From the NCBI GenBank assembly GCA_026710625.1, contig JAPOQQ010000045.1, forward strand, positions 1 through 33,786: a stretch of 33,786 nt of DNA. The letters are read 5' to 3'. The position numbers were made by a program, and so were the translations under genes. The notes beneath the pieces are model-generated. The model was given only the letters and a program-made list of their open reading frames with translations. It was not told the origin of the DNA and made no database searches. Shown here one piece after another: positions 2,298 through 33,786 of this stretch (position 1 is the first letter of the stretch; each line of letters begins with the position of its first letter). Source of the DNA: Candidatus Dadabacteria bacterium (lineage in GTDB: Bacteria; Desulfobacterota_D; UBA1144; Nemesobacterales; Nemesobacteraceae).

Positions 2298-4232
2298 ATG
2301 CTTAAAAAAAGTTTCTTCTGTTTGTCCGTTCTCATATTCTTTCTTCTTCCTCAGCTTTCCTACGCCGGAGAGATAGACAGGGTCCTCTCTCTTGTCGATT
2401 ACATAGGAGGAGATTACTCAAACGCCGTAAAAGATGGGGAGATAGTAAACGAATTTGAGTATCAGGAGATGCTGGATTTCTCTTCTGCCGCGGTTCACCT
2501 GTGGGAAAAGACGGCTGAGAAGGGAGAAAAAACGGCTGATTTTTCCGAAAAATTTGCGCGGCTGCACTCAATCATAGTATCCAAAGGTCCTGTCTCCGAT
2601 GTGGAAAGTCTTGCCAATGAGCTTAAGGGGCGGATCATTTCAGCCTATGACATCAAGCCTTACCCGGCGAAGATTCCGGATTACGAAAGCGGAAAGGCGC
2701 TTTACGCGGAGAACTGTTCCTCATGTCATGGGATTTCCGGAAGGGGAGATGGGGTTCTCTCTAAAAACCTTAACCCTCCCGCCACGGATTTTACAGATCC
2801 CGACATAAATCTTGGATTTTCCCCTTTTAAAGTTTACAACACCGCCACTTTCGGGATCGAAGGCACCGCCATGACCTCGTTTGAAAATGTGCTTGACGAT
2901 TCGCAGAAGTGGGACGTGGCGTTTTACGTTCTCTCACTTGGGTACCCGGATGTTCCAAAGGGCGGGAATGGGTTGGGGGGGACACCCCGGAACATTCCGA
3001 ACGATATGAGAAAACTTGAGAATCTCGCCCTCGCAAGCAACGCGGAAATCCTGCTGGATGCTGATACCGGGGGCCATGACGAAGACATTCTTTTTTACCT
3101 TAGAACCGCTTATTTTCGGGACGGGATTGCCGGGGGAGCTTCCGAGGCTATTGCCCATACCCTTGGTAAGCTTGAGAAAGCCATCGATCTTTACGAGGCC
3201 GGCAGAAAGGATGAGGCATTAAGTGAAGCTCTCGACGGGTACCTGGAGGGCTTTCAGAAAATCGAGCCCGCCTTGGTCTCGAAAAAAAGATCACTTGTTT
3301 TTGAGGTTGAGAAGAAAATGGGGTTTTTCAGGTCATGGGTAATGTCAGAGAGGGACTCGTCTGAGCTTCGTGATCTGAAAGCGAGCATAGAGAAGGACCT
3401 GCTCGAATCGGAACGTATCCTAAAAGGCGGTTCGTCTCTCGGCAAATACCTGAGCTTCGTTAATTCCTTTGCCATAATACTGAGAGAAGCCCTTGAGGCT
3501 CTGCTGATAATCGCGGCAATTATCGCCGCTTTGGCGCATTCGGGAAACCGCGGGATGATCAGGTACGTTCACTACGGATGGGTGGTTGCCCTTTTAGCGG
3601 GTTTGGCCACATGGGTTGCGGCTAGAACCGTGATAGATATCTCGGGAGCGAGAAGGGAGATTGTAGAGGGAGCAACTTCTCTTTTGGCGGCCGTGGTTCT
3701 TTTCTACGTGAGCTATTGGCTTGTCTCAAAAGCGGACGTGAAAAAATGGAAGGAATACGTCCGCTCCAAAACCCAGGGAGCACTTACCCGCAGAAGCGGG
3801 CTTACTCTTGCCTTCGTTTCATTCCTGGCCGTTTACAGGGAGGCTTTTGAGACGCTGCTTTTCTACCAGGCGCTTTTCTACCAGACCGGTTCCTCCACGC
3901 CCCACGTGATCTACGGACTTGTCGCGGGAGTAGCGGTTGTGTTCGTAATAGCTTTTCTTATGTACAGGTTTACTCTCAGGATTCCTCTTAAGTACTTCTT
4001 TTCCTTCACAAGCATTTTCCTTTATCTGCTCTGCTTCATACTGCTTGGCAAGGGAATACTGGAATTTCAGGAATCGGGAATTATTTCTTCAACCTCAGCG
4101 GATTTCATTCCTTACATGGATATTCTCGGGATATATCCCACTTATGAAACCGCGATTCCCCAAGCTGTTCTGCTTGTCCTTGCCTTTTTGCTATTTGCAC
4201 GAAATTACGTCTACCGGGAAAAACATTCCTAA
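2298..4232 (+). CDS. Cytochrome c/FTR1 family iron permease fusion
   Basis: A 644-residue fusion. A signal peptide (about 1-23) is followed by a c-type cytochrome domain with the haem site CSSCH at residues 140-144 and a likely axial Met192 in the GTAMTSF segment. A Gly-rich linker (221-229) and a helical region (about 270-375) lead to an FTR1-type membrane domain (about 385-640). This carries the REALE (396-400) and REAFE (513-517) motifs in membrane helices; the RExxE Glu residues bind iron in the FTR1/EfeU family. A third RExxE, REIVE, is at 453-457. Known relatives couple ferrous iron oxidation to ferric iron permeation; the attached cytochrome probably accepts the electron. The divergent porin and FMN-binding genes fit an iron-uptake and electron-transfer locus. 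The linker DNA contains a G-quadruplex motif. Confidence 0.92.
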   Translation: MLKKSFFCLSVLIFFLLPQLSYAGEIDRVLSLVDYIGGDYSNAVKDGEIVNEFEYQEMLDFSSAAVHLWEKTAEKGEKTADFSEKFARLHSIIVSKGPVSDVESLANELKGRIISAYDIKPYPAKIPDYESGKALYAENCSSCHGISGRGDGVLSKNLNPPATDFTDPDINLGFSPFKVYNTATFGIEGTAMTSFENVLDDSQKWDVAFYVLSLGYPDVPKGGNGLGGTPRNIPNDMRKLENLALASNAEILLDADTGGHDEDILFYLRTAYFRDGIAGGASEAIAHTLGKLEKAIDLYEAGRKDEALSEALDGYLEGFQKIEPALVSKKRSLVFEVEKKMGFFRSWVMSERDSSELRDLKASIEKDLLESERILKGGSSLGKYLSFVNSFAIILREALEALLIIAAIIAALAHSGNRGMIRYVHYGWVVALLAGLATWVAARTVIDISGARREIVEGATSLLAAVVLFYVSYWLVSKADVKKWKEYVRSKTQGALTRRSGLTLAFVSFLAVYREAFETLLFYQALFYQTGSSTPHVIYGLVAGVAVVFVIAFLMYRFTLRIPLKYFFSFTSIFLYLLCFILLGKGILEFQESGIISSTSADFIPYMDILGIYPTYETAIPQAVLLVLAFLLFARNYVYREKHS

Positions 4233-4303
4233 GCTGCGGACGGCACTCAAAACGCGGCATCTCGCGGGTGCTGTCTTTCAGCAAGTATAAATATGCACTG
4301 ATC

Positions 4304-4543
4304 ATGAGTCCTACGGTGTTCAAAGAAAGAGGGTATCGATTCTTCTTTTTCTCAAGGGAAGAACAACGAATTCATATCCATGTAGTATCCGGTGACGGTG
4401 AGGCGAAGTTTTGGCTTGAGCCCAAAATTGAGTTAGCAAAAAATTATCGTTATTCTATACATCAACTGAAGGAGATTGAATTACTCGTGGAGGCTCATTA
4501 CGATGAACTTGTCGCAGCATGGAAGCAGCATTTCGGCAGTTGA
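4304..4543 (+). CDS. DUF4160 domain protein
   Basis: A 79-residue protein beginning MSPTVFKERGYRFFFFS, matching the DUF4160 pattern. It has the conserved IHIHV segment, the GEAKFWLEP core and a C-terminal helix ending in AWKQHFG. I chose the ATG at 4304 because family members start at this Pro-Thr-Val segment; an upstream in-frame ATG at 4268 is less likely. Its 3' end overlaps the DUF2442 gene by 41 bp, the standard arrangement for this pair. DUF4160/DUF2442 pairs are often discussed as toxin-antitoxin-like, but no activity is established that I can cite. The pair is more AT-rich than the flanking permease and tig genes, which suggests acquisition. Confidence 0.85.
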   Translation: MSPTVFKERGYRFFFFSREEQRIHIHVVSGDGEAKFWLEPKIELAKNYRYSIHQLKEIELLVEAHYDELVAAWKQHFGS

Positions 4544-4769
4544 GGTGACAAATATCTCTGTTCATGGAGTATGGCTTCTGGCTCACGGAAAAGAGTTATT
4601 TATGTCTTATGATGATTTTCCTTGGTTCAGGGATCAGTCTGTGAAATCAATCATTAATGTTGAAGAATCGTCACCAGGCCATTTCTATTGGCCCGATATT
4701 GATGTTGACGTTACGGAAGAAATAATTGAAAATCCTGCAAAGTTCCCCCTAAAAGCAAAGAGCAAATAA
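4503..4769 (+). CDS. DUF2442 domain protein
   Basis: An 88-residue protein with the DUF2442 signature: a VTNISVHGVWLL strand pair, LFMSYDDFPWFRD, a variable middle, and YWPDIDVDV followed by a short tail ENPAKFPL. The start is placed at ATG 4503, inside the DUF4160 gene; an earlier ATG at 4476 is possible. The 41-bp overlap implies translational coupling. Function is unknown; it is the usual partner of DUF4160 proteins and may bind DNA or its partner. Confidence 0.85.
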   Translation: MNLSQHGSSISAVEVTNISVHGVWLLAHGKELFMSYDDFPWFRDQSVKSIINVEESSPGHFYWPDIDVDVTEEIIENPAKFPLKAKSK

Positions 4770-4839
4770 CGAATATATCAGCATCCCAGAGAGAAGATTG
4801 CTTTATCTGGAAATTATTTACCGAGAGGTCTTAAACTAA

Positions 4840-6147
4840 ATGAAAATAGATATTGAAGATATTGACAGCACCAGAAAAAAGATAAGGGTTTCTCTTTCTT
4901 CAGAGCAGGTCGCGGAAAAAAGAAATTCCGTGTTCCGCGATGTTATGGGGGGAGTGAGCGTCAAAGGGTTTAGAAAGGGGAAGGTCCCCCGTCACGTGGT
5001 CGAGTCCATGTACGGAAAGGAGGTAGATCAGGAAACCGCATCTAGCCTTGTCTCGGAGACCCTATCCGAAGCCCTTGCGCAGCGCTCGCTTTTGCCGGTA
5101 ACGCGTCCCGACATTACGGAAATGGGTGAGGTAAAGACCGGAGAGGAGTTTGCTTATTCGGCTGAATTCGAGGTGATTCCCGATTTTGAGCTTTCCGAGT
5201 ACAGCTCGATTCCAGTGAAGAAAACCGCCCGTCAGGCGACCGAGGAGGACATAGACGCCGAGGTACAGAAACTAAGGGAAAGGTCCGCGCAGTCAAGGCT
5301 TATCGAGGAGGACCGTCCTGCCAAGGAAGGTGATTACGTCTTTGTAGACTACAGCGGTACGTTTGAGGACGGGGAGACCATAGACGATCTTAGCAGGCAG
5401 AACGTGAGATTCTTGCTGGGCGAAGAACAGTTTGCACCCGAATTCGAAGAAAACCTGCTTGGGAAAAAGGCGGGCGAGGAAGCTGAATTCTCGGTTTCCT
5501 ACCCGGAGGATTTCCTGATATCCGAGGCCGCCGGGAAAACCGTCAGTTTCACCGTCAAGGTAAATGAGATTCATGACAGAATTCTTCCCGAGGCGGACGA
5601 TGATTTCGCGAAGGATTTCGATGTCGAGGGCATCTCTGAGTTGCGAGAGGCCATAAAGGAGCAGCTTGAGCGCCTTCACGAAGACGAACAGCTCTCATCC
5701 ATGAGGGATCAGATAGTCGACGACCTTCTCTCAAAAAACCAGTTCGACGTTCCTCGGTCGCTGCTTGAAAAGGAGGAGGAAAGCCTTAGAGCGAGATTCC
5801 TCTCCGACATGCAGAGAGGCGGAGTCGCGGAGCCCGAGATCGGGGAGGACGTGGCACCGAAGTTCACCGAGAAGGCTGCCGAGAGCGTCAGGACATCCAT
5901 AATTCTCGGCCGCATCGCTCAGAAGGAGAACGTGAGAGTTACCCGCAAGCAGTTAAACGAGCACATAGACCGCCTCGCCGCCTCATACAATCTCCCCCCG
6001 GATCAGGTACACAAGGCTTATGAACAGCCAGGGACTATGGAGCATCTGGAATCCCAGATCAAAACCCGTGGAGTCTTGGATCTTCTCCTGGAGCGGGCCC
6101 AGATTGAGGAAGTGGAAGGTGAACCTGCGCAGATTGACAAGGAATAA
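4840..6147 (+). CDS. tig: Trigger factor, ribosome-associated chaperone and prolyl isomerase
   Basis: A 435-residue protein with full trigger-factor architecture. The N-terminal ribosome-binding domain contains the signature GFRKGKVP at residues 43-50, which docks at the exit tunnel by protein L23. An FKBP-type PPIase domain (about 155-245, with [15 protein letters not shown]) follows, then a long helical C-terminal chaperone domain. The protein binds nascent chains in the cytoplasm. A GAGAGG sequence upstream supports the ATG at 4840. It precedes clpP and clpX, a very common gene order. The last codons of tig contain the -35 element of the clpP promoter. Confidence 0.97.
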
Positions 6148-16516: not shown

Positions 16517-19039
16517 ATGAGATATTTTCTGAATAAAAATCTTTTCCCAGTTCTGTCTGCGGTTCTCGTTTTTTCCGCTTCTGTTCTCTGTCCCCAGTTG
16601 GCTCCTGCAGAGAAGTCTGAGCCGCTTCCGGATCTTACGAGGGCTAGGGTTGTCGTCGCCCCGGGTGCAAAACTGAAAAAGGCGAGCGGGGAGGATGAAT
16701 CCAAGGAGGATTCGCCCGCGAAACCCGCTGATATTGCCGAGAGAGCTGCGGAGTTGCTGGCCGAGGAGGCCGCAAAAGACCCGGGCAAGCAAGACTTAAG
16801 GCCTCTCGGGAAGGATGCAATGAAAGTCTCGGGCGACGAGATTCTGGAAGATTTGGTTGAGGACCCCGGCCTACCGCTCGATTTAGCGGAGGAAGATGCT
16901 GTAGCCGAAGTTGGGGAAGCCCCTGAGCCCGAGGGGGAGAAGCCTGAGAAAATGTCGCCCGCAATCGCCGAGGGTTCAGAGGATGATATTCTCGATGAAG
17001 AGGGTGAGCAAATTCCCGAGGACGAGGGAATGGTCAACCTTCGCGCCAACATGACGCTTAATGAGATGGTAAAGACCATAAGCGAGATCACCTCCGAGGT
17101 TTATCTCCTGAGTGACAAGATCAGGGACAAAAACGTGACGATCATAACTCCCCAGGGCGGTTTCGAGAAGGAGAATGCGTTTAGGATTTTTGAAATACTG
17201 CTTGATATGAACGGCTATTCGGTCATAAGCACGGAGGGAGTCAACAAGATCGTTCCGAAAAAAGGGATAAAGTCAGAGAGCATACCACTAAGACGGGATT
17301 TTGACCCCGGAGAATCTTCCCGGAAATACGTGATGAAGCTGATAAAGCTTAAGAGCGTAAAAGCCAAAGGAGTCTCCAACGTCCTTCGAGCCCTGGTTAG
17401 CAAGGATGGGTTCATGAAGGCTCACGTACCGTCGAATACCCTAGTGGTGGTTGATAATGAACAGAACGTGAACAAGATAGCCGAAGTGATTGCGAATCTT
17501 GATTACGAGAAGAAAATAGAGTTCGTCAAAGTGGATAACACAAACTCGGCGAGCGTCATTTTTAAGCTGCTTGAGATCTTCAACCCTCAGAGCAGCAAGA
17601 CCAAGCCGTCAAAGGGCAAGAATGACGGTTTCATATCCGGAAGCTCTGATCTCCTAGGGTTTAAAGTGATAAACGACGAGAGGACAAATTCCATAATAGT
17701 GATTGCTGATCCGAGGGACCTTCTCCTGATAAAGGAAACGATTGCCGTTTTGGACATCGAGAGCGAGCATGCGGAACAGGACGTCTACGTTATACCGGTT
17801 AAAAACGCCGACGCCGAGCAGATAATCGAAGTTCTGGGAAATCTGTTCGCGGAGGGGGAAGGGGGCTCAGTGTCTTCAGTTTCCTACCGGGACCAGGCGC
17901 GGCAATCCGGTAGAACCGGCCAGCCTTCAAGCCGTCTCGGAGAGGGGAAAGTGGGCGGCAGCGGAAATGTCGGTGGTCTAGGTTCCCAGGGCGGGAACAT
18001 CCAGAGGGGAGGAAGCGAGCAGACCGGTGGTTCCGTTATAGTGTCTTCGGGTGATGGGCTTAAGATAACTTCAGACCCGGCGACAAATTCCATTATAGTG
18101 ATCGGTTCTCTCACGCAGTACAGAATGGTCAAGCAGATAGTGGACAAGCTTGACGTAAGGAGAAGGCAGGTGTTTGTGGAGGCTGCAATACTCGAGGTGG
18201 GCCTTGACAACCTTAACGCGCTGGGAACCAATTTTGGTCTCGGTGTTACAATCGAGGGCGACAATCTCGGTTTCCTCGGACAGCAGCTGCCGGGCATCCC
18301 GAGCCTTCTCGGAGTTGCGGCCGATCCCACAATTGCAACGACTTCCATAGGCGGTCTTTCAGGGCTCTTTCTCGGAGTAGTGGGAGAGGAAGTTGACCCC
18401 GACGGTTCGGGTCCGCTTCCGTCTCTTCCTTCGTTCTCCGCGGTGTTTCAGGCCCTGAGTTCCGTAACCGACGTCAACGTCCTTTCAACTCCGAGCATTA
18501 TTACAACCGACAACGAGCCGGCTGAGATAGTCGTGGCTGACATAATACCGTTTCCGATGGGCAGCACCGTGGGAACAAGTGGCGTGACGGTTCAGACGAT
18601 CGAGAGGCTGCCGGTAGGAATAAGGCTTAGCATCACCCCCCAGATAAGCGAAGGAGAATACCTTAACCTTGACATAGTGACCGAGGTTTCCTCTACCCGG
18701 GAGGCGCCTGCGGGACTTAACACCGCCCAGTTCGGCATCGCGACTACAACAAGAAGCGCCGATTCGTCGGTTATAGTCAAAAATGGACAGACCCTCGTTA
18801 TAGGCGGGCTGGTTCAGGACAGAGAAGAGGTGCTTCACAACAAAACACCTCTTCTCGGAGATATTCCGCTGATTGGAAACCTGTTCAGGTTCAAGCGCAA
18901 TCAAACCAGGAAGCTTAACCTGATGATACTTCTTACACCGCGGATAGTTGAGACGGAAAGCGATATGAAGCAGTTGCTTATGGATTACCAGAAAAGAAAG
19001 ACCTTGCTTCATAGAAGGGACCTAAATACGCTTGAGTAG
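16517..19039 (+). CDS. gspD: Type II secretion system secretin GspD
   Basis: An 840-residue secretin, longer than the roughly 650-700 typical of the family. A signal peptide (1-31, ending APA) is followed by an unusual acidic, proline-rich, probably disordered stretch (about 33-171). Then come N0 (172-247), N1 (about 270-335), N2 (335-415) and N3 (420-548), with a long Gly/Ser-rich loop at 446-510. The secretin core (about 550-815) ends with the signature TPLLGDIPLIGNLFR. The protein forms the outer-membrane exit channel. It lacks a lipobox and no pilotin gene is adjacent. It is followed by gspE after 14 bp. Confidence 0.95.
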   Translation: MRYFLNKNLFPVLSAVLVFSASVLCPQLAPAEKSEPLPDLTRARVVVAPGAKLKKASGEDESKEDSPAKPADIAERAAELLAEEAAKDPGKQDLRPLGKDAMKVSGDEILEDLVEDPGLPLDLAEEDAVAEVGEAPEPEGEKPEKMSPAIAEGSEDDILDEEGEQIPEDEGMVNLRANMTLNEMVKTISEITSEVYLLSDKIRDKNVTIITPQGGFEKENAFRIFEILLDMNGYSVISTEGVNKIVPKKGIKSESIPLRRDFDPGESSRKYVMKLIKLKSVKAKGVSNVLRALVSKDGFMKAHVPSNTLVVVDNEQNVNKIAEVIANLDYEKKIEFVKVDNTNSASVIFKLLEIFNPQSSKTKPSKGKNDGFISGSSDLLGFKVINDERTNSIIVIADPRDLLLIKETIAVLDIESEHAEQDVYVIPVKNADAEQIIEVLGNLFAEGEGGSVSSVSYRDQARQSGRTGQPSSRLGEGKVGGSGNVGGLGSQGGNIQRGGSEQTGGSVIVSSGDGLKITSDPATNSIIVIGSLTQYRMVKQIVDKLDVRRRQVFVEAAILEVGLDNLNALGTNFGLGVTIEGDNLGFLGQQLPGIPSLLGVAADPTIATTSIGGLSGLFLGVVGEEVDPDGSGPLPSLPSFSAVFQALSSVTDVNVLSTPSIITTDNEPAEIVVADIIPFPMGSTVGTSGVTVQTIERLPVGIRLSITPQISEGEYLNLDIVTEVSSTREAPAGLNTAQFGIATTTRSADSSVIVKNGQTLVIGGLVQDREEVLHNKTPLLGDIPLIGNLFRFKRNQTRKLNLMILLTPRIVETESDMKQLLMDYQKRKTLLHRRDLNTLE

Positions 19040-19053
19040 GGAATTTTTAGAAA

Positions 19054-20736
19054 ATGAAGGCTCTTGACGAAATAATAGGCAGGCGTTACCCCGAGGTTAT
19101 GGGGAGGATTGAAGAGCTTAAAGGGAAAAACGGCCGGAACACAGAAGACATACTGCTCAAAACTGACGTACTGAACGACTCCCCGGCTCTTGATGTTCTT
19201 TCCGAATTTTACGGAGTCGAGAAAATCGAATCGATTCCCGAAGACGATATAGATTATGAACTGATAAAACAGTTTCCGATCAGCTTCGCGAAAAGATTCA
19301 GAATACTCCCCATAAACAAGGACAACGGAACTCTTAAAGTCATATTCGCCCCGCCCCAGGAACTCTACGCCCTTGACGAGGTCCGCTCCCGCTTTAATTG
19401 TTCGCTTGAAACTTACATTACTCTTGAGCGCGTGCTGACCGACAGCATTAACAGGATTTACGAGCAGGGCAAAGACGTTGTATCGGAGGATATGAACGAA
19501 GGTTCGGGACTCTCCGATATGGAATTTACCGAACCCCAGGATCTGATTGAGGCCGAAGACGAAGCCCCGATCATAAAATTCATAAACACGCTTCTTTTTC
19601 AGGCGGTAAGGGAACACGCAAGCGATATTCACATAGAGTGTTTCGAAAAAGAAGTGCTGGTACGGTTCAGAAAGGATGGCATTCTGCACGACGTGACGAA
19701 AGTTCCGAAGACGGTGCAGTCTTCGGTGATCTCGCGCGTGAAAATCATGTCTGAACTTGATATAGCCGAGAGAAGAAAACCTCAGGACGGAAGCATAAGG
19801 CTGAAGATCGGAGGAAGGGATATCGACGTAAGGGTTTCGACGGTTCCCACTTCATGGGGAGAGAGCGTGGTAATGAGGCTGCTTTACAGGTCTTCGGTGC
19901 TGATGAGCTTTGAGCAGCTGGGGCTTGAAGGAAAAAAACTCAAAACGGTGGAATCCCTTATTAAACGTCCTCACGGAATCATTCTGGTTACGGGGCCTAC
20001 GGGAAGCGGAAAGACAACAAGCCTCTATGCAGCCCTGCAGAGAATCAATCTTCCCGACAAGAAGATAATCACCATAGAAGACCCGGTTGAATACCAGATA
20101 CAGGGAATTAACCAGATCCAAGTCAATACCAAAGTCGATCTTACGTTCGCAAATGGACTTCGCTCAATACTCAGGCAGGATCCCGACGTTATACTAGTCG
20201 GGGAGATAAGGGACAGGGAAACCGCCGATATTTCCATGAACGCTTCACTCACTGGGCATCTCGTATTTTCCACTCTGCATACCACTGATTCGGTAAGCGC
20301 CGTGACCAGGCTTGCCGATATGGGAGTGGAGTCTTTTCTTATAGCTTCTACCCTCTCAGCGGTCATAGCTCAGAGGCTTGTCAGGGTTCTTTGCACGCGG
20401 TGCAGAGAACAGTACGTGCCGATTGATGAGGAGGTCAGCCGTATCGGACTTGCTCGCGAGGCTTGTCCGGAAGGAAAGATATACAGAGCCAAAGGATGCC
20501 AAGAGTGCATGGAGACGGGGTTTTCGGGAAGAATAGCGATTTTTGAAATACTGATTATCGATGATGGACTTAAAAACACTATTCTCACACACCCGGATTC
20601 TTCAACCCTTAAGGAAAAGGCCCTGAGAAACGGACTCATTACCCTTAGAATGGACGGTGCCGACAAAGTCGCAAAAGGCATAACGTCAATTGACGAAGTG
20701 CTCAGAGTTACGGAAGAGGAACCGGCGGAGAGCTAG
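19054..20736 (+). CDS. gspE: Type II secretion ATPase GspE
   Basis: A 560-residue cytoplasmic ATPase. N1E-type domains occupy about 1-150. The catalytic core has Walker A GPTGSGKT at 314-321, an Asp box in ITIEDPVEYQ (about 339-348), Walker B in DPDVILVGEIRD (about 376-387) and a His box in STLHTTD. A zinc-binding CM domain carries Cys447, Cys450, Cys482 and Cys485, as in canonical GspE. It powers pseudopilus assembly and normally docks on GspL, which is not encoded in this window. It belongs to the same family as PilB, but neighbours gspC, gspD and gspK assign it to secretion. Confidence 0.95.
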   Translation: MKALDEIIGRRYPEVMGRIEELKGKNGRNTEDILLKTDVLNDSPALDVLSEFYGVEKIESIPEDDIDYELIKQFPISFAKRFRILPINKDNGTLKVIFAPPQELYALDEVRSRFNCSLETYITLERVLTDSINRIYEQGKDVVSEDMNEGSGLSDMEFTEPQDLIEAEDEAPIIKFINTLLFQAVREHASDIHIECFEKEVLVRFRKDGILHDVTKVPKTVQSSVISRVKIMSELDIAERRKPQDGSIRLKIGGRDIDVRVSTVPTSWGESVVMRLLYRSSVLMSFEQLGLEGKKLKTVESLIKRPHGIILVTGPTGSGKTTSLYAALQRINLPDKKIITIEDPVEYQIQGINQIQVNTKVDLTFANGLRSILRQDPDVILVGEIRDRETADISMNASLTGHLVFSTLHTTDSVSAVTRLADMGVESFLIASTLSAVIAQRLVRVLCTRCREQYVPIDEEVSRIGLAREACPEGKIYRAKGCQECMETGFSGRIAIFEILIIDDGLKNTILTHPDSSTLKEKALRNGLITLRMDGADKVAKGITSIDEVLRVTEEEPAES

Positions 20737-20767
20737 ACCACAGTTATCTTTAGCATCGGTATTTCAA

Positions 20768-21976
20768 ATGCCTGTTTATAACTATAAAGCCATTAACGAC
20801 AAGGGCGAATCGGTAAAGGGAGCTATCAGCGCAGAATCGGTCAAGATCGCAAGCGACAGGCTCAGAAAAGGCGGCATCTATCTTTCCTCTATAAAGGAGG
20901 CGAGCGGGTCCCGCCGCTCGTCGGTGAGCCTTCCGTGGAACAGGGTGAGCATCTCGGAGCTTGCCGTTATGACAAGACAGTTCTCAACCCTGATTTCATC
21001 AGGTCTTCCTCTTGAGACGTCGCTTGTGGCCCTCTACGACCAGACCGATGACCAGAAGCTCAAGGGAATTCTCTCTCAGGTGCGAAGCCGAGTGAGTGAA
21101 GGCAGTTCTCTTCACTCCGCACTTGAGGAGCACGAAGGTGCTTTCTCCGATCTTTACGTGAGCATGGTTCGTGCTGGCGAGGCTAGCGGCACTCTTGATG
21201 TCGTACTTGACCGTCTTGCGGATTTCCTTGAAAAGCAGCTCGAGCTGACTTCGAAGATCAGGGGCGCCATGATATATCCGGCGATAATGTTTGTCGTCGG
21301 GCTTGGGGTACTGGTTTTCATGATGACTTTCGTAATTCCCAAGGTCGCCAATATATTCGAGGCCAGCAACAAGGCTTTGCCCTTTGTTACCGTAGTACTT
21401 ATAGGGGCAAGTGATTTTCTGAGGGAGAATTTTATCCTTCTGCTGGTTTTCCTGGCCGTCGTATTATTTTTTGGACACAGGTACGTAAAAACTCCTTCCG
21501 GAAAGAAGGTCTACGACAGGTTTTCCCTAAGGGTTCCAGTGTTCGGGAAAATGTCTTCAAAAGTGATGATTTCCCGTTTCACAAGAACGCTTGCCACACT
21601 GCTTTCAAGTGGCATTCCTCTTCTTGAATCCATCAGGGTGAGCGAATCGGTTATGGGAAACAGTCTTTATGTTGACAATATAAAGGATGTGCGGGTCAAG
21701 GTTGCTGAGGGAGCGGCGTTTGGAGGCTGTCTTGCACAGACCGGGATTTTTCCTCCTCTAATGGTGAGAATGGTGTCTGTGGGCGAGGAGGCGGGTAAAA
21801 TGGAAGTCATGCTGTCGAAAGTGGCCGATATGTATGATACCGAGGTCGACGGCATGCTTGCCACGCTGACTTCCCTTCTTGAACCGGTAATGATACTGAT
21901 TATGGGCGTCGTGATGGGTTTTATAGTTTTTGCTATACTTTTACCCGTATTGAATCTAACTTCTGTAATAAGCTGA
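20768..21976 (+). CDS. gspF: Type II secretion inner-membrane protein GspF
   Basis: A 402-residue platform protein with two cytoplasmic T2SSF helical domains (about 65-190 and 270-395) and three transmembrane helices (about 170-190, 220-240 and 375-395). It starts MPVYNYKAINDKGE, typical of GspF. An upstream in-frame ATG (20690) lies within gspE and is rejected. It binds GspE and GspL and anchors pseudopilus growth. The spacing to gspE is 31 bp and to gspG 17 bp. Confidence 0.95.
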   Translation: MPVYNYKAINDKGESVKGAISAESVKIASDRLRKGGIYLSSIKEASGSRRSSVSLPWNRVSISELAVMTRQFSTLISSGLPLETSLVALYDQTDDQKLKGILSQVRSRVSEGSSLHSALEEHEGAFSDLYVSMVRAGEASGTLDVVLDRLADFLEKQLELTSKIRGAMIYPAIMFVVGLGVLVFMMTFVIPKVANIFEASNKALPFVTVVLIGASDFLRENFILLLVFLAVVLFFGHRYVKTPSGKKVYDRFSLRVPVFGKMSSKVMISRFTRTLATLLSSGIPLLESIRVSESVMGNSLYVDNIKDVRVKVAEGAAFGGCLAQTGIFPPLMVRMVSVGEEAGKMEVMLSKVADMYDTEVDGMLATLTSLLEPVMILIMGVVMGFIVFAILLPVLNLTSVIS

Positions 21977-21993
21977 ACAGGGAGGTGGAAAAA

Positions 21994-22413
21994 ATGAGAT
22001 CCCAGATGGGGTTTACTCTGATTGAAATTATGGTGGTCGTGCTTATCATAGCGGGGCTTGCCTACATAGTGGGAACGAATGTGATAGGTCAGGGGGAGAG
22101 GGCAAAGGAAAAACAGGCCATGATTCAAATCAAGCAGTTTGAGCAAGCGCTCCAGCTGTTTAAGTTTGATAACGGTTTTTATCCTGAAACCCAACAGGGG
22201 CTGCGCGTTCTGGTCGAACCGGTAACGGTGGGCAGGGAGGCCAAGAGGTGGAGACGTTATCTTGAATCCGCGAGCGTGCCGCTTGATCCTTGGGGGAACG
22301 AGTTTGTATATTTCGGGGTCGACCAGACCGAGGACGGATTTTATTATATAAGATCTAACGGTCCGGATGGGATAGGGAATTCAGACGATGATCTGTCCAG
22401 CAGAGACAGATGA
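21994..22413 (+). CDS. gspG: Major pseudopilin GspG
   Basis: A 139-residue pseudopilin. The prepilin cleavage site MRSQMG|FTLIE has Gly at -1, Phe at +1 and Glu at +5, followed by a hydrophobic helix. The globular part includes FDNGFYPETQQGLRVL, a PLDPWGNEF segment, and the C-terminal SNGPDGIGNSDDD calcium-binding loop characteristic of GspG. The start at ATG 21994 is set by GGAGGT 7 nt upstream; GTG 21985 lies inside that ribosome-binding site. GspG polymerises into the periplasmic pseudopilus. Its stop overlaps the gspH start (ATGA). Confidence 0.96.
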   Translation: MRSQMGFTLIEIMVVVLIIAGLAYIVGTNVIGQGERAKEKQAMIQIKQFEQALQLFKFDNGFYPETQQGLRVLVEPVTVGREAKRWRRYLESASVPLDPWGNEFVYFGVDQTEDGFYYIRSNGPDGIGNSDDDLSSRDR

Positions 22414-22943
22414 GAAGAAATTCCGCCGGTTTTACCTTAGTTGAACTCCTTGTGGTCGTTTTTCTGCTCGGAGCTTTTTTCTCCGTGGCCATGCCCAGAG
22501 TCCTCAAAACGGGTGACATGAACCTTCGCAGCGCTTCAAGAGGGCTTGTCACTACGATAAGACATATTTACAGTAAAGCCATTTTTGAAAAACGGATATA
22601 CAAGCTTTCTTTCGATATCGATACCGGGGAATACTGGGCAGAATTTCTTGAGGGAAACCAGTTCCGCTTGGAGGAGGATTCCGCAGCTGGACTCAGAAAA
22701 CTTCCCAGCGGGGTCTTTTTCAGCGATATACAGACGGAGAGAACCCAAGGGAAGATCGCTTCCGGAAGAGACGCATTTATACTTTTTCTGCCGACTGGGA
22801 TTGTTGACTCGGCGGTTATTCACCTGCGAACTGGTAAGGACAATTTTTTCACGCTTTCCACAAACCCCTACACCGGGGCCACTAAAGTTTTTGACGAGTA
22901 CGTCGAATTTAACAGCCGGCTTCAGAATCTGGCGGAACGGTAG
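22410..22943 (+). CDS. gspH: Minor pseudopilin GspH
   Basis: A 177-residue minor pseudopilin. The cleavage site is MRRNSAG|FTLVE, followed by a hydrophobic helix and a GspH/FimT-like beta-rich globular domain with GRDAFILFLPTG. It sits near the tip of the pseudopilus. Translation is coupled to gspG by a 4-bp ATGA overlap. Confidence 0.9.
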   Translation: MRRNSAGFTLVELLVVVFLLGAFFSVAMPRVLKTGDMNLRSASRGLVTTIRHIYSKAIFEKRIYKLSFDIDTGEYWAEFLEGNQFRLEEDSAAGLRKLPSGVFFSDIQTERTQGKIASGRDAFILFLPTGIVDSAVIHLRTGKDNFFTLSTNPYTGATKVFDEYVEFNSRLQNLAER

Positions 22944-22955
22944 GGAGAAGACTGT

Positions 22956-23330
22956 ATGAGGGCCTCGAGAAACAGCGCTTGCGGGTTCACGTTGCTTGAA
23001 GTCATGGTTGCCGTGGGGTTGCTTGCCTTCGCGATGGTGTCAATCCTCGGCATTGTAAGTCACAATATAAATCTTGCCACAAGATCCACCAACTACCTGA
23101 TAGCCACGAGTCTGGCCGACGACTTAGCTTCACGGATCGATGCTGAAGGGCTCCCGTCAGCATCGGAGAGAAGCGGGAAATTTGAAAATTATCCCGGTTT
23201 TGAGTGGTATGTCACAGTTTCCCCATACAATTTAACCCAATTCGAAGCGAGAATGACCATTGTCAGTGTTCTTATAACCTGGAACGACGGGGAGGAGAGC
23301 TATGAGATCAGCTTCGTTGATTCGGGATGA
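22956..23330 (+). CDS. gspI: Minor pseudopilin GspI
   Basis: A 124-residue pseudopilin with cleavage site SACG|FTLLEVMVA and a C-terminal beta domain (FEWYVTVSPYN, MTIVSVLITWNDGEESYEIS) typical of GspI. In characterised systems GspI, J and K form the tip complex. The 3' end overlaps gspJ by 29 bp. Confidence 0.9.
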   Translation: MRASRNSACGFTLLEVMVAVGLLAFAMVSILGIVSHNINLATRSTNYLIATSLADDLASRIDAEGLPSASERSGKFENYPGFEWYVTVSPYNLTQFEARMTIVSVLITWNDGEESYEISFVDSG

Positions 23331-23976
23331 TAAGAGCGGGTTCACCCTTATAGAGGTTCTTATCGTTGTTGCCATAACGGTCATCGTGCTCACGATGCTC
23401 TACAGTTCCTTTTCCCAGCTTGTAACAGCCAAACGCAGGGTGGAGACGGAAAACGAATTGATCCAGGAAACAAATACTATCCTGCTTAAGATGCGCCACG
23501 ACCTGGTGAATGCTTTTCCCAGAGGCAATATCAATTCCAAGGTTTCTTCTCCCTCCGCATATAGTTACTTTACCGGGAGTCTCGAAGGGGATAACAGCAG
23601 GATAGTATTCACCTCTTTTGCAAAGGACCCCACGCATTATTCCACCCAATCCGGCCAGAGCGAGATCTCCTACTATCTGGTTCCGCTTCGTAGCGAGCGC
23701 GAAGATATGTTTGCGCTTATGAGGAAAGATAATTACTGGATCGGAAACGATGAGGCCGGAGCTGCGTATCCGATCTCGGAAAGGGTGCTGAGTTTCAGAG
23801 TGAATTTCCTTTCCGAACGATCCCCAGCCTCGGCTAACGAGCAAAAGGTGTGGGAGTGGAATTCGTCAGTAATGCGGGGATTTCCCAAAGCGGTTCAGGT
23901 CCAGATCATTCTTTTGGGAGACGGGGACCAGAAGGAGGCCTATTCCATGATTGTTGCTATACCGGTGGCTGACTGA
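23302..23976 (+). CDS. gspJ: Minor pseudopilin GspJ
   Basis: A 224-residue pseudopilin with cleavage site DDKSG|FTLIEVLI and the long GspJ-type globular domain (LVPLRSEREDMFALMRKDNYW, RVLSFRVNFLSE). It belongs to the I-J-K tip complex. GGAGAG just before ATG 23302 supports the start inside gspI. The stop codon abuts the gspK ATG with no gap. Confidence 0.9.
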   Translation: MRSASLIRDDKSGFTLIEVLIVVAITVIVLTMLYSSFSQLVTAKRRVETENELIQETNTILLKMRHDLVNAFPRGNINSKVSSPSAYSYFTGSLEGDNSRIVFTSFAKDPTHYSTQSGQSEISYYLVPLRSEREDMFALMRKDNYWIGNDEAGAAYPISERVLSFRVNFLSERSPASANEQKVWEWNSSVMRGFPKAVQVQIILLGDGDQKEAYSMIVAIPVAD

Positions 23977-25068
23977 ATGCGCAGAACAGATCCGAAGACA
24001 ACCCAGAGGGGGATAGTACTTGTTATCGTTGTTATAACGATTGCTATACTTTCCACGATCGTGATTGATTTCATATACTCGACCCGCGTGAGTTACGAAA
24101 TTTCCGTGAACAGCTCAAGCGATGTCCAGGCAAGACATATTGCGAAATCAGGGGTGAGAGTTGTGCGAGGGGTGCTGAGAAAGAAAACGCCGGAGGATTT
24201 ATCCTTACTGCAGGGAATGCTTGCGCAGGCGATAAGCTCAGAAAACGGTGCCGACGGCTGGAAGCTTTCTATCACCTCTTTTCCGATCGGAGAAGGAAAC
24301 ATATCTCTTCAAGTGGTAGATGAGAGATCGAAAGTCAATCTCAACGCTCTTGTGGACCAGAGATCGGGCCGGGTGGATTTTCAGGTTCGAACGCAGCTAA
24401 ATGAACTTTTCCGCTTTCTCGGAGTGGAGACGGAGAAGGCCGATCTCTTCGTGGCAAGTCTGGTGAACTGGCTTGACGGGGCGGCGCCGGGTAGCGGAAA
24501 TGATCAGGCCCCTGATGGAGCCGGTGGGAACTATTACACAAGACTTGATAATCCTTATTATATTAAGGACGGACCGCTTGACAGCGTTGAGGAAATTAGG
24601 ATGATTGAGGGGATGGATAAGGACTTCTTTTTCAAGGTCAAAGACTATCTCACCGTCTATCCTGAAGACAAGAAGGTGAATTTCAGCACCGCTTCAAAAA
24701 CAGTGATAATGGCTACCATTAAGGCCGCGGGGGTCTCGGTCAACGAGAGGCAGAACGATCCCCGGGAGATAAAAGACAGCGTAGTCGGAAGAATGGCTGA
24801 CGAGATAATCATTCGCAGGAGCACCAAGAGAGTCATATCTGCCAGCGAGACCAATAAAATCTTAAAGGGAGTGGATTCCGCTCTGAAGATAAGCTCCGGT
24901 ATTTCGGGAGTGGTTCTTAAGGGTGGAAAAAGCGATGTCTACACCGCTGTTTCCACGGGCATAGTGGGAGAGCAGATTCCCGTTACAAGGCAGGTTCAGG
25001 CCGTTATCCGTAAAAACCTGAAAAAGAAAAATTCGTATCCGACCGTGGCGTCTTGGAGAGAAAGATAA
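23977..25068 (+). CDS. gspK: Pseudopilin tip protein GspK
   Basis: A 363-residue protein with a short leader cut after TTQRG and a hydrophobic helix without Glu at +5, the normal GspK exception. The large globular domain includes VVDERSKVNLNALV, LFVASLVNWLDG, NPYYIKDGPLDSVEEIRMIEGM and a second helix-hairpin-helix-like lobe, as in family members. It caps the pseudopilus with GspI and GspJ. It is the last gsp gene here, and its TAA lies 2 nt before the mature 5' end of tRNA-Leu, which must then be processed from the gsp transcript or have a promoter inside gspK. Confidence 0.93.
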   Translation: MRRTDPKTTQRGIVLVIVVITIAILSTIVIDFIYSTRVSYEISVNSSSDVQARHIAKSGVRVVRGVLRKKTPEDLSLLQGMLAQAISSENGADGWKLSITSFPIGEGNISLQVVDERSKVNLNALVDQRSGRVDFQVRTQLNELFRFLGVETEKADLFVASLVNWLDGAAPGSGNDQAPDGAGGNYYTRLDNPYYIKDGPLDSVEEIRMIEGMDKDFFFKVKDYLTVYPEDKKVNFSTASKTVIMATIKAAGVSVNERQNDPREIKDSVVGRMADEIIIRRSTKRVISASETNKILKGVDSALKISSGISGVVLKGGKSDVYTAVSTGIVGEQIPVTRQVQAVIRKNLKKKNSYPTVASWRER

Positions 25069-32954: not shown

Positions 32955-32983
32955 TTGACAGTATGCACTATTATTTGTTAGAC
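32955..32983 (+). promoter_or_regulatory. Weak candidate promoter for the FN3/Calx-beta gene
   Basis: A perfect TTGACA (32955-32960) lies 17 bp before TTAGAC, a poor -10. The -10 region overlaps a perfect inverted repeat GTTAG-A-CTAAC (32977-32987), which could be an operator. It is about 70 bp upstream of ATG 33055. Confidence 0.25.
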
Positions 32984-33054
32984 TAACCAGTACATATCTA
33001 GACCGACCGTATGTTCCTAATACAAGAAGTCTGCAATCAGGGAGAAGCGCTTCC

Positions 33055-33135
33055 ATGAAAAATTCAGCCCATAGAAATAACCCTTTACAACTGAAGTTTA
33101 GTTCTACCCCCCCCCTCAAAAACTTGATTCTGTAA
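33055..33135 (+). CDS. Short leader frame that would be the 5' end of the surface-protein gene
   Basis: ATG 33055 follows a good ribosome-binding site (AGGGAGA, 33039-33045). The frame runs through a C9 tract and stops at TAA 33133-33135 after 26 codons. With one extra C the same frame continues into the FN3/Calx-beta gene downstream. I see it as the displaced N-terminus of that gene rather than an independent peptide. Confidence 0.45.
   Translation: MKNSAHRNNPLQLKFSSTPPLKNLIL
33107..33115 (+). repeat. Nine-C homopolymer tract, candidate phase-variation switch
   Basis: C9 lies between the only ATG with a good ribosome-binding site and the signal peptide of the surface protein. Upstream and downstream frames differ by exactly one inserted C. 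Slipped-strand mispairing in such tracts switches surface genes ON and OFF in many bacteria. Confidence 0.55.
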
Positions 33136-33786
33136 TACATAAACGGAGGACGTTACTTTCCCTTGTGCTGACTGCGCTGCTGGGAGCGCTGTCGCTGTTC
33201 GCCGCCGCGCCCGCGCAGGCGCAGAGTCCGAATCCGGTAACCAATCTGACGGCAACCCCGGGCGACGGAAAGCTGACGGTAGCTTGGACCAATCCATCTG
33301 ATGCGATTGCTGCACCCAACAACCATTTCCCCCAGGTGCGCTGGAAGGTGCAGAACACGAACACCTGGTTGAATTCTGGCGAGGCGACCGGTAACCCTGC
33401 AGGAATCGGTGCAACGTCGTACGAAATCCCGACCTTGACGAACGGCACGACATATGTGGTCGAGGTCAGAATTTTTCGAGGGAGCGATTCATTCGGTAGC
33501 AACTGGGTTTCCACGACCGGAACGCCGAATGTGCCACGCCCCACCGTCTCCCTCTCGGCCTCCCCGAACCCGGTGACGGAAGGTTCGTCGGTAACGGTGA
33601 CGGCGACGCTGTCGGAGGCGCTGTCGAACAGCGTGGACATCCCGCTGACGATTACGGACAACACGGCGGAGTCGGGCGATCACGGTACGCTGACGAGTAT
33701 CACCATCGCTGCCAACGCGATAAGCGGCACGGGGACGATCACTACGAAGCAGGACGGGGACACGGAGGTCGAGACCTTCACGGTGT
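33135..33786 (+). CDS. Secreted or surface protein with FN3 and Calx-beta-like domains (partial, no normal start in this frame)
   Basis: A reading frame open from 33102 to the window end. It reads HKRRTLLSLVLTALLGALSL then FAAAPAQA, a clear signal peptide cut after AQA. A fibronectin type III-like domain begins at PNPVTNLTATPGDGKLTVAW and continues to WVSTTGTP. A Calx-beta-like repeat follows (PTVSLSASPNPVTEGSSVTV, then IPLTITDNTAESGDHGTL), as in adhesins and large exoproteins. No ATG exists in this frame: ATA sits at 33135, and GTG 33165 would remove the KRR n-region and is 14 nt from GGAGGA. An upstream ATG (33055) would join the frame if the C9 tract gained one C. GC content jumps sharply at the gene, suggesting foreign origin. 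Confidence 0.7.
   Translation, partial: MHKRRTLLSLVLTALLGALSLFAAAPAQAQSPNPVTNLTATPGDGKLTVAWTNPSDAIAAPNNHFPQVRWKVQNTNTWLNSGEATGNPAGIGATSYEIPTLTNGTTYVVEVRIFRGSDSFGSNWVSTTGTPNVPRPTVSLSASPNPVTEGSSVTVTATLSEALSNSVDIPLTITDNTAESGDHGTLTSITIAANAISGTGTITTKQDGDTEVETFTV

What the first reader, a model, noticed from the sequence alone, without database searches (positions are those of the whole stretch)
33055..33240. Apparent phase-variable surface protein in the OFF state (C9 tract between start codon and signal peptide)
ATG 33055 has a good ribosome-binding site and enters a run of nine C's (33107-33115), then hits a stop at 33133. The downstream frame encodes a textbook signal peptide plus FN3 and Calx-beta domains but has no ATG of its own. 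Adding one C fuses the two frames exactly, adding about 29 residues before the KRR n-region of the signal. Poly-C slippage controlling adhesins is well known in other bacteria; here the pairing of features is read directly from the sequence and the switching is inference. A sequencing or assembly homopolymer error would look the same.
Basis: partly seen in the sequence, partly recalled or inferred. Interest (0 to 1): 0.85.

Follow-up and report, generated by a model that had tools for sequence, protein, structure and literature searches.

The report
Poly-C on/off switch for surface protein
A run of nine C's near the start of a secreted, adhesion-like protein gene in an uncultured Dadabacteria bacterium leaves the gene reading as 'off'; the same layout recurs in its genus in both on and off states, so it is very probably a slip-strand switch of a known type in a little-studied lineage.

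Summary
In detail: ATG 33055, C9 at 33107-33115, stop at 33133, and a signal peptide plus FN3 in the other frame with no good start of its own; one more C joins the frames. It is not an isolated error. A paralog in the same genome has the same leader, C9 and neck but is in frame (C9TT); two congeneric species carry the layout out of frame. Neck and signal peptide show purifying selection in the joined frame; the leader only weakly. In 12 genus genomes, 29 of 142 C/G runs of 9 or more precede a signal peptide (random positions: mean 5.6, max 13), and 26 such loci divide ON 9, one base short 10, one base long 7 (7:10:3 without six weak calls). Another 24 of 141 runs lie in promoter spacers (control mean 2.6, max 7). 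Mechanistically this is ordinary SSR phase variation, but a genus-wide repertoire in an uncultured lineage for which my searches found no report. Against it: all four family-1 tracts are exactly C9, the OFF states lean to 'one short', and no reads were available. Side finding: an IS110 clade whose guide segment reads poly-C sits in poly-C runs and apparently splits one gene of this family.

The parts
32955..32984 (+). sigma-70-like promoter by eye: TTGACA 32955-32960, 18-nt spacer, TAGACT 32979-32984; this promoter/leader region is repeated upstream of other genes
   Evidence: sequence; similar upstream DNA at own contigs C71, C79, C6, C124, C7
33040..33044 (+). ribosome-binding site GGGAG, 10 nt before ATG 33055
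   Evidence: the homologous place is a G10 run in G010:C8
33055..33135 (+). leader ORF as sequenced (C9): 26 codons then TAA
   Evidence: ATG to first C is 52 nt in all four family-1 copies compared
33107..33115 (+). C9 homopolymer, proposed switch; C10 joins the frames
33117..33140 (+). neck (QKLDSVIH) between tract and signal peptide, read in the downstream frame
   Evidence: distance from tract to signal peptide differs only by multiples of 3 among C45, G004, G010
33141..33221 (+). signal peptide KRRTLLSLVLTALLGALSLFAAAPAQA (crude scan and eye; no dedicated predictor)
33234..33491 (+). fibronectin type III domain
   Evidence: PF00041, E 2.8e-5
33540..33786 (+). Calx-beta/LapA-like domain, cut by the contig end; similar DNA in own contigs C57, C87 and C49
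33165..33167 (+). GTG, first ATG/GTG/TTG of the downstream frame; judged not the start

Best explanation
The C9 run is a translational phase-variation switch of a surface protein. The protein starts at ATG 33055 with a 29-residue extension before a Sec signal peptide. Slipped-strand mispairing adds or removes C's. With C10 (or another length in the same frame) ribosomes read leader, signal peptide, FN3 and Calx-beta-like domains; with C9, as assembled, they stop after 26 codons, so the drawn state is OFF. Shown in silico: layout, joined frame, in-frame paralog, selection on neck and signal peptide, three frame states across the genus. Inferred: slippage as the cause, reversibility, surface exposure, a role in contact with the host.
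For: Paralog C57 in the same genome has leader, C9 and neck, but C9 is followed by TT and the gene is in frame for 439 codons to the contig end. G004:C20 and G010:C8 keep ATG-52 nt-C9-neck-signal peptide with only 3-nt differences in the neck. Pooled over three pairs, neck plus signal peptide changed at 28 of 82 synonymous and 25 of 221 nonsynonymous sites (Fisher p 1e-5); leader 7 of 30 and 12 of 123 (p 0.06). 29 of 142 runs of 9+ C/G in 12 genus genomes are followed by a signal-peptide-like segment, against mean 5.6, max 13 of 200 random draws. In 26 loci with a leader start: ON 9, one base short 10, one base long 7, lengths 9-15. Family 2 in G003 has the same design on a G run: G9 in frame at C23, C83 and C99, G10 out of frame at C32, and copies with no tract in the coding leader, uninterrupted, at C72, C18 and C41. 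24 of 141 runs lie in promoter spacers (control mean 2.6, max 7). A PLD/SNF2 helicase gene is split by C9/C9/C8 in G000, G011 and G012, yet both halves have dN/dS 0.06-0.21.
Against: All four family-1 tracts are exactly C9, and three of them are out of frame in the same direction. Without six weak calls the leader loci read 7:10:3 (one short against one long 10:3, p 0.09). Mid-gene breaks that survive inspection are 6 one short, 1 one long (p 0.125). No within-population length mixture could be looked for. The own genome has no excess of 9-mers. The leader's selection signal is weak. The G001:C6 copy keeps neck and signal peptide but has a different upstream region, C6 and no ATG/GTG/TTG in its 57-codon open stretch, so not every copy has this switch.
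Confidence: 0.8

Rival explanations
1. Programmed -1 ribosomal frameshifting or transcriptional slippage on C9 makes the fused protein from a fixed tract; no DNA switching.
For: Window, G004, G010 and the three split helicases all need exactly +1 (equivalent to -1 frameshifting), and downstream halves are under selection; the leader loci and mid-gene breaks lean the same way, 10:3 and 6:1.
Against: The 26 leader loci show all three frame states, nine of them in frame. The 100 nt after C9 fold no better than shuffles (z 0.64; 144 of 200 shuffles fold at least as well).
Confidence: 0.1
2. Assembly or sequencing error: the true tract is a fixed C10.
For: One base would join the frames; homopolymers are error-prone; contigs end near these repeats; the lean to one base short is what under-calling would give.
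Against: C9 also found in separate MAGs G004 and G010; runs of 10-15 are recovered in sister genomes; some genus loci are one base long.
Confidence: 0.06
3. Decayed gene: a frameshifted pseudogene.
For: Out of frame as assembled; an IS110 element apparently splits the G007 copy.
Against: No other stop in 670 nt downstream, and neck plus signal peptide under purifying selection across copies.
Confidence: 0.04

Closest known systems
Neisseria pilC-type translational phase variation (tract position recalled, not from a call)
   Same: Homopolymer in the 5' coding region of a surface or adhesion gene; +/-1 changes the frame.
   Different: Poly-C here, between a 29-residue extension and the signal peptide; unrelated protein; class Ca. 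Dadabacteria; switching not observed.
Neisseria porA/opc/fetA promoter-spacer phase variation (recalled)
   Same: 24 of 141 genus tracts lie between -35 and -10 boxes with spacers of 14-20.
   Different: Not the mechanism at the window locus, whose promoter has no tract.
Homopolymeric tracts at 5' ends of genes (PMC2831843, passages seen)
   Same: 5'-proximal tract that inactivates by frameshift.
   Different: The passages seen concern poly-A and poly-T; here long C/G runs before signal peptides.
IS110 elements with bridge RNA (PMC11208160, passages seen)
   Same: DEDD transposase domain; left-target-guide segment matches the left flank; CC before the left end in 25 of 26 readable copies.
   Different: One clade's guide segment is poly-C and its copies sit in poly-C runs; none of the 12 papers listed held the term 'poly-c'.

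Membership tests
SSR translational phase variation | Long mono-repeat in the 5' coding region, with a change of one unit switching the frame | tested here: met
SSR translational phase variation | Both sides of the tract are translated as one protein | tested here: met
   C57 in frame; neck plus signal peptide selection p 1e-5, leader only p 0.06
SSR translational phase variation | Tract length and ON/OFF state vary among copies | tested here: met
   Across the genus 9:10:7, or 7:10:3 without six weak calls; within family 1 only C9 or C9TT
SSR translational phase variation | Length varies within a population, reversibly | not testable with these tools
   no reads or further strains of this species
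SSR translational phase variation | Slippage shown by its genetics (mismatch-repair dependence and the like) | not testable with these tools
   no culture
Programmed frameshifting | One conserved offset across homologues | tested here: inconclusive
   not met over 26 leader loci, but 3 of 4 family-1 copies and 3 of 3 split helicases share one offset
Programmed frameshifting | Stimulatory downstream structure | tested here: not met
   window 33116-33215 folds no better than shuffles, z 0.64; pseudoknots not tested
IS110 (side finding) | DEDD_Tnp_IS110 domain | tested here: met
   E 2.2e-36 on L125:4222-5079
IS110 (side finding) | Left target guide matches target | tested here: met
   14 copies, 99 of 126 matches, shuffled mean 68.8, max 94, 0 of 5000 reach it; 16 copies 110 of 144, and 12 without poly-C copies 83 of 108, also 0 of 5000
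IS110 (side finding) | Right target guide and donor loop pairing; activity | not tested
   not attempted

The most novel reading that the evidence does not exclude
This Dadabacteria genus carries a genus-wide set of contingency loci (C/G tracts before signal peptides and in promoter spacers, three leaders with a second G tract at the ribosome-binding site), and a lineage of IS110 elements has a bridge RNA programmed to poly-C, so that the switch tracts are also its homing sites and insertion locks switches off.
Probability: 0.55. Interest if true: 0.75.

Novelty: new member of a known kind. Interest (0 to 1): 0.6.

Why it matters
If true, an uncultured and probably sponge-associated lineage diversifies its FN3/Calx-beta surface proteins by the same stochastic switches that host-adapted pathogens use. 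That suggests variable recognition by an animal host or by phages outside the pathogen world, and it can be tested from existing metagenome reads. Gene callers will tend to annotate such loci as broken or shortened. The IS110 clade would be a natural bridge RNA whose target is a repeat that the host keeps for its own switching.

Tried and rejected
Counting C9 runs in the own genome gave no excess (7 of 9+, about 5 expected), so tract count alone is not evidence. A start at GTG 33165 was rejected (ATA in G007, no charged n-region). Synteny of the window locus with G004, G010 and C57 was sought by the neighbouring homoserine dehydrogenase and not found in the stretches held, about 1.3 and 1.6 kb upstream for G004 and G010 and the whole contig for C57; copies are treated as family members, not orthologues.

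The first view that every broken tract needs +1 (note) was tested. The codon-score test gave 10 one short, 1 one long, but it mixes the two sides of a tract; L238, L285 and L332 gave no real protein on one side and L266 and L332 are in frame by the ORF test, so six to one remains (L129, L134, L144, L146, L161, L312 against L330). The ORF-only test gave 36 in frame, 24 needing +1 and 17 needing -1 entries over 145 tracts of 8 or more, with several tracts entered twice.

Of the 31 rows I dropped five: L138 and L158 (own ATG after the tract), L289 twice (5'UTR or spurious) and L156:1989 (second tract of one gene). I kept L065 and L248, which the signal-peptide scanner missed. Six calls are weak: L246 (two possible starts; ON by the start conserved in L298), L254 (start 21 nt from the tract), L263 (no ribosome-binding site), L265 and L277 (an ATG just after the tract) and L269 (off by either of two starts). 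Several other leader starts also lack a clear ribosome-binding site and rest on conservation (L145, L237, L250, L255). In one search the two tracts of L156 count twice; L158, L254 and L289 are in both the signal-peptide and the promoter list. The position column of the promoter hits is a stale value; loci and sequences are right. G009 (29 runs) was not fetched, and G011:C13 was left out of the 142 by oversight.

In one search, 14 of 19 aligned IS110 rows were used; five were dropped (two with short targets, three with the loop apparently cut). With two of those three put back the result held; the last has too short a guide. Sorting signals: the C87 C-terminus gave MYXO-CTERM below cutoff (16.7 against 20); the G003:C41 C-terminus gave LPXTG_anchor just above its cutoff (16.5 against 15.9), which I do not trust for this lineage. 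The Taibaiella hit (L082) was not looked at.

Full report
What is there. The window is the whole contig C45 of a 1.83 Mb, 174-contig MAG (G000). Its right end holds ATG 33055, a leader, C9 at 33107-33115 and TAA at 33133, then in the other frame a neck, a signal peptide, an FN3 domain and the start of a Calx-beta-like domain. A DNA pattern from the leader found the same sequence in two named MAGs of Candidatus Dadabacteria whose contig lengths equal those of G004:C20 (JAJEGO010000022.1, 14,532 bases) and G007:C25 (JAPPFE010000047.1, 34,965 bases, isolate RHO1_bin_23); both are in the window's genus. That the host is a sponge is inferred from the isolate name and from sponge MAG surveys that include Dadabacteria (PMC8163846, passages seen); it is not shown for G000.

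The family of the window gene. The leader and promoter region recur in G000 and in sister species. Own contig C57 has the same leader, C9 and neck, but C9 is followed by TT, which puts the ATG in frame with the signal peptide and 439 codons to the contig end. G004:C20 and G010:C8 have ATG, 52 nt, C9, neck and signal peptide; both need C10. The distance from the tract to a signal-peptide anchor is 46, 43 and 40 nt in C45, G004 and G010, so the differences are multiples of 3. In pooled comparisons (C45/C57, G004/G001, G010/G007) neck plus signal peptide changed at 28 of 82 synonymous and 25 of 221 nonsynonymous sites; the leader (C45/C57, G004/G010, G007/C71) at 7 of 30 and 12 of 123 (Fisher p 1e-5 and 0.06). 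So neck and signal peptide are translated in the joined frame; for the leader the signal is weaker. The codon at 33165 is GTG, ATG, GTG, ATG, GTG and ATA in C45, C57, G004, G010, G001 and G007, which speaks against it as the start. One copy does not fit: G001:C6 keeps neck and signal peptide behind a different upstream region with C6, and its open stretch of 57 codons before the neck has no usual start codon.

The wider pattern. I counted C/G runs of 9 or more in the 13 genomes of the genus, one match per run: 186 runs, 8.5 per Mb, against 151 runs in 29 other genomes of the order, 2.2 per Mb (Mann-Whitney p 4e-5; genome sizes rounded), and 0 in 14 small genomes of family f8. This is not unique to the genus: G014 of the order has 26 and the more distant G057 has 42. 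Base composition was not corrected for. Flanks were fetched for 12 of the 13 genomes (not G009); 151 distinct tracts were held, 9 at contig ends were dropped and 142 tested. Of the 142, 29 are followed within 70 codons by a signal-peptide-like segment in an open frame; random positions in the same loci gave mean 5.6, sd 2.2, max 13 in 200 draws. With two loci the scanner missed added and five rows dropped, 26 loci divide into ON 9, one base short 10, one base long 7, not different from thirds (p 0.76). Six of these calls are weak; without them the division is 7:10:3 (p 0.16; one short against one long p 0.09).

Examples. In G012 two paralogs share leader and neck, C50 with C11 in frame and C23 with C10 out of frame. 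In G003 a second family uses a G run: C23, C83 and C99 with G9 in frame, C32 with G10 out of frame, and C72, C18 and C41 with no tract in the coding leader and uninterrupted, C18 having a G10 farther upstream. The tract-free copies show that the long N-terminal extension is real protein. Twenty-four of 141 tracts lie between a -35 (5 of 6 or better to TTGACA) and a -10 box with spacers of 14-20; with shuffled flanks the mean was 2.6, max 7 of 200. One is in the own genome: C21, TTGACA-15-TAGAAT with G9, before a lipoprotein-like gene with RTX-type repeats (recognised by eye). Three leaders have a second G tract at the ribosome-binding site: G010:C8, G003:C83, G011:C11.

Mechanism. The simplest account is slipped-strand change of tract length at DNA level. 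Programmed frameshifting or a systematic under-call of homopolymers would give one constant offset; leader loci show all three, and the 100 nt after the window tract fold no better than shuffles. Three results fit less well. All four family-1 tracts are exactly C9. A PLD/SNF2 helicase gene is split at C9 in G000 and G011 and at C8 in G012, each one base short, while G006, G025 and G033 are intact there; both halves are under purifying selection (dN/dS 0.06-0.08 and 0.14-0.21). And the OFF states lean to one short, 10:3 among the firmer leader loci and 6:1 among mid-gene breaks that survive inspection. Contraction-biased slippage from an ON length, frameshifting at some genes, or some under-calling could each add to this; I cannot decide.

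IS110 and the tracts. G007:C25 carries the leader and C9 directly followed by the left end of an IS110 element, and G007:C31 starts with a right end identical over the 53 bases shown to that of the G012:C3 element, followed by the neck and signal peptide of the same family. The two contigs are therefore read as one gene copy split by the element at the tract; the join itself is inference. Of 27 left ends aligned (of 29 matches), 7 follow runs of 8 or more C's, 19 follow flanks with at most 4 C's, and 1 was misaligned. Four of the 7 have the guide segment in view and it reads six or seven C's. In 14 copies with target and guide both readable, the guide matches its own left target in 99 of 126 positions, against a shuffled mean of 68.8 and max 94; none of 5000 shuffles reached it, and the result holds with two dropped copies restored and with the poly-C copies left out. 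[quoted passage not shown] Own C71 (C6 then an IS110-like left end) and C87 (a right end before a surface gene) look alike.

What is known. 5'-proximal homopolymers as switches are established (PMC2831843, passages), and Neisseria phasomes of about 15 poly-G tracts per meningococcal genome are described (PMC5953494, passages; their length cut-off was not checked). A search for Dadabacteria with 'phase varia' gave two papers; the passages seen are not about phase variation in Dadabacteria. Sponge, metagenome-assembled and contingency loci gave none. Sponge, symbiont and phase variation gave ten listed papers, none of which appears from title and start of abstract to describe this. Only this open-licence library was searched. 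Verdict: a new member of a known kind, with good evidence for a genus-wide repertoire and a possibly new link to IS110.

Noticed in passing
L125 (G010:C1) 3970-5079; L179, L180, L199, L200; G007:C31 start (L159): IS110 clade with a poly-C guide segment inserted in poly-C runs; apparently splits the family-1 gene of G007 at its C tract.
   Followed up: partly
G000:C174:5108-5116 (L161); L211, L212: PLD/SNF2 helicase (second half matches PADLOC HKD+Snf2, DrmD, BrxHI models) split by C9/C9/C8 in three species, intact in G006; both halves under purifying selection.
   Followed up: partly
L129, L134, L144, L146, L161, L312 against L330: Mid-gene frame breaks that survive inspection: 6 need +1 base, 1 needs -1 (p 0.125); a possible unexplained lean.
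   Followed up: partly
24 loci, own L160 439-447: Poly-G/C runs inside promoter spacers, e.g. before an RTX-repeat lipoprotein-like gene in the own genome.
   Followed up: partly
L156 1989-1997, L066 1545-1554, L295 1480-1489: A second G9/G10 run at the ribosome-binding site of leaders that also have a coding tract.
   Followed up: no
G003:C23 (L151) next to the tract: The coding sequence beside the G9 tract equals, reversed, the first 19 bases of the IS110 left end (AGTACCTTTCTAAAAGCTT); perhaps an IS relic.
   Followed up: no
own C71, C79, C6, C124, C7 (L010, L069-L072): The window gene's promoter/5' region is repeated upstream of other genes, some of them lipoprotein-like by eye.
   Followed up: partly
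own C87, C49; G001:C6; G003:C41: C-termini with Gly-Gly-Cys, a hydrophobic stretch and a basic tail; MYXO-CTERM below cutoff for C87, LPXTG_anchor just above cutoff for G003:C41. T2SS genes (GspD, GspE, GspK) lie in the window at 16517-25068.
   Followed up: partly
G014 and G057: High numbers of C/G runs of 9+ outside the genus: 26 in G014 (same order), 42 in G057 (only the domain shared).
   Followed up: no
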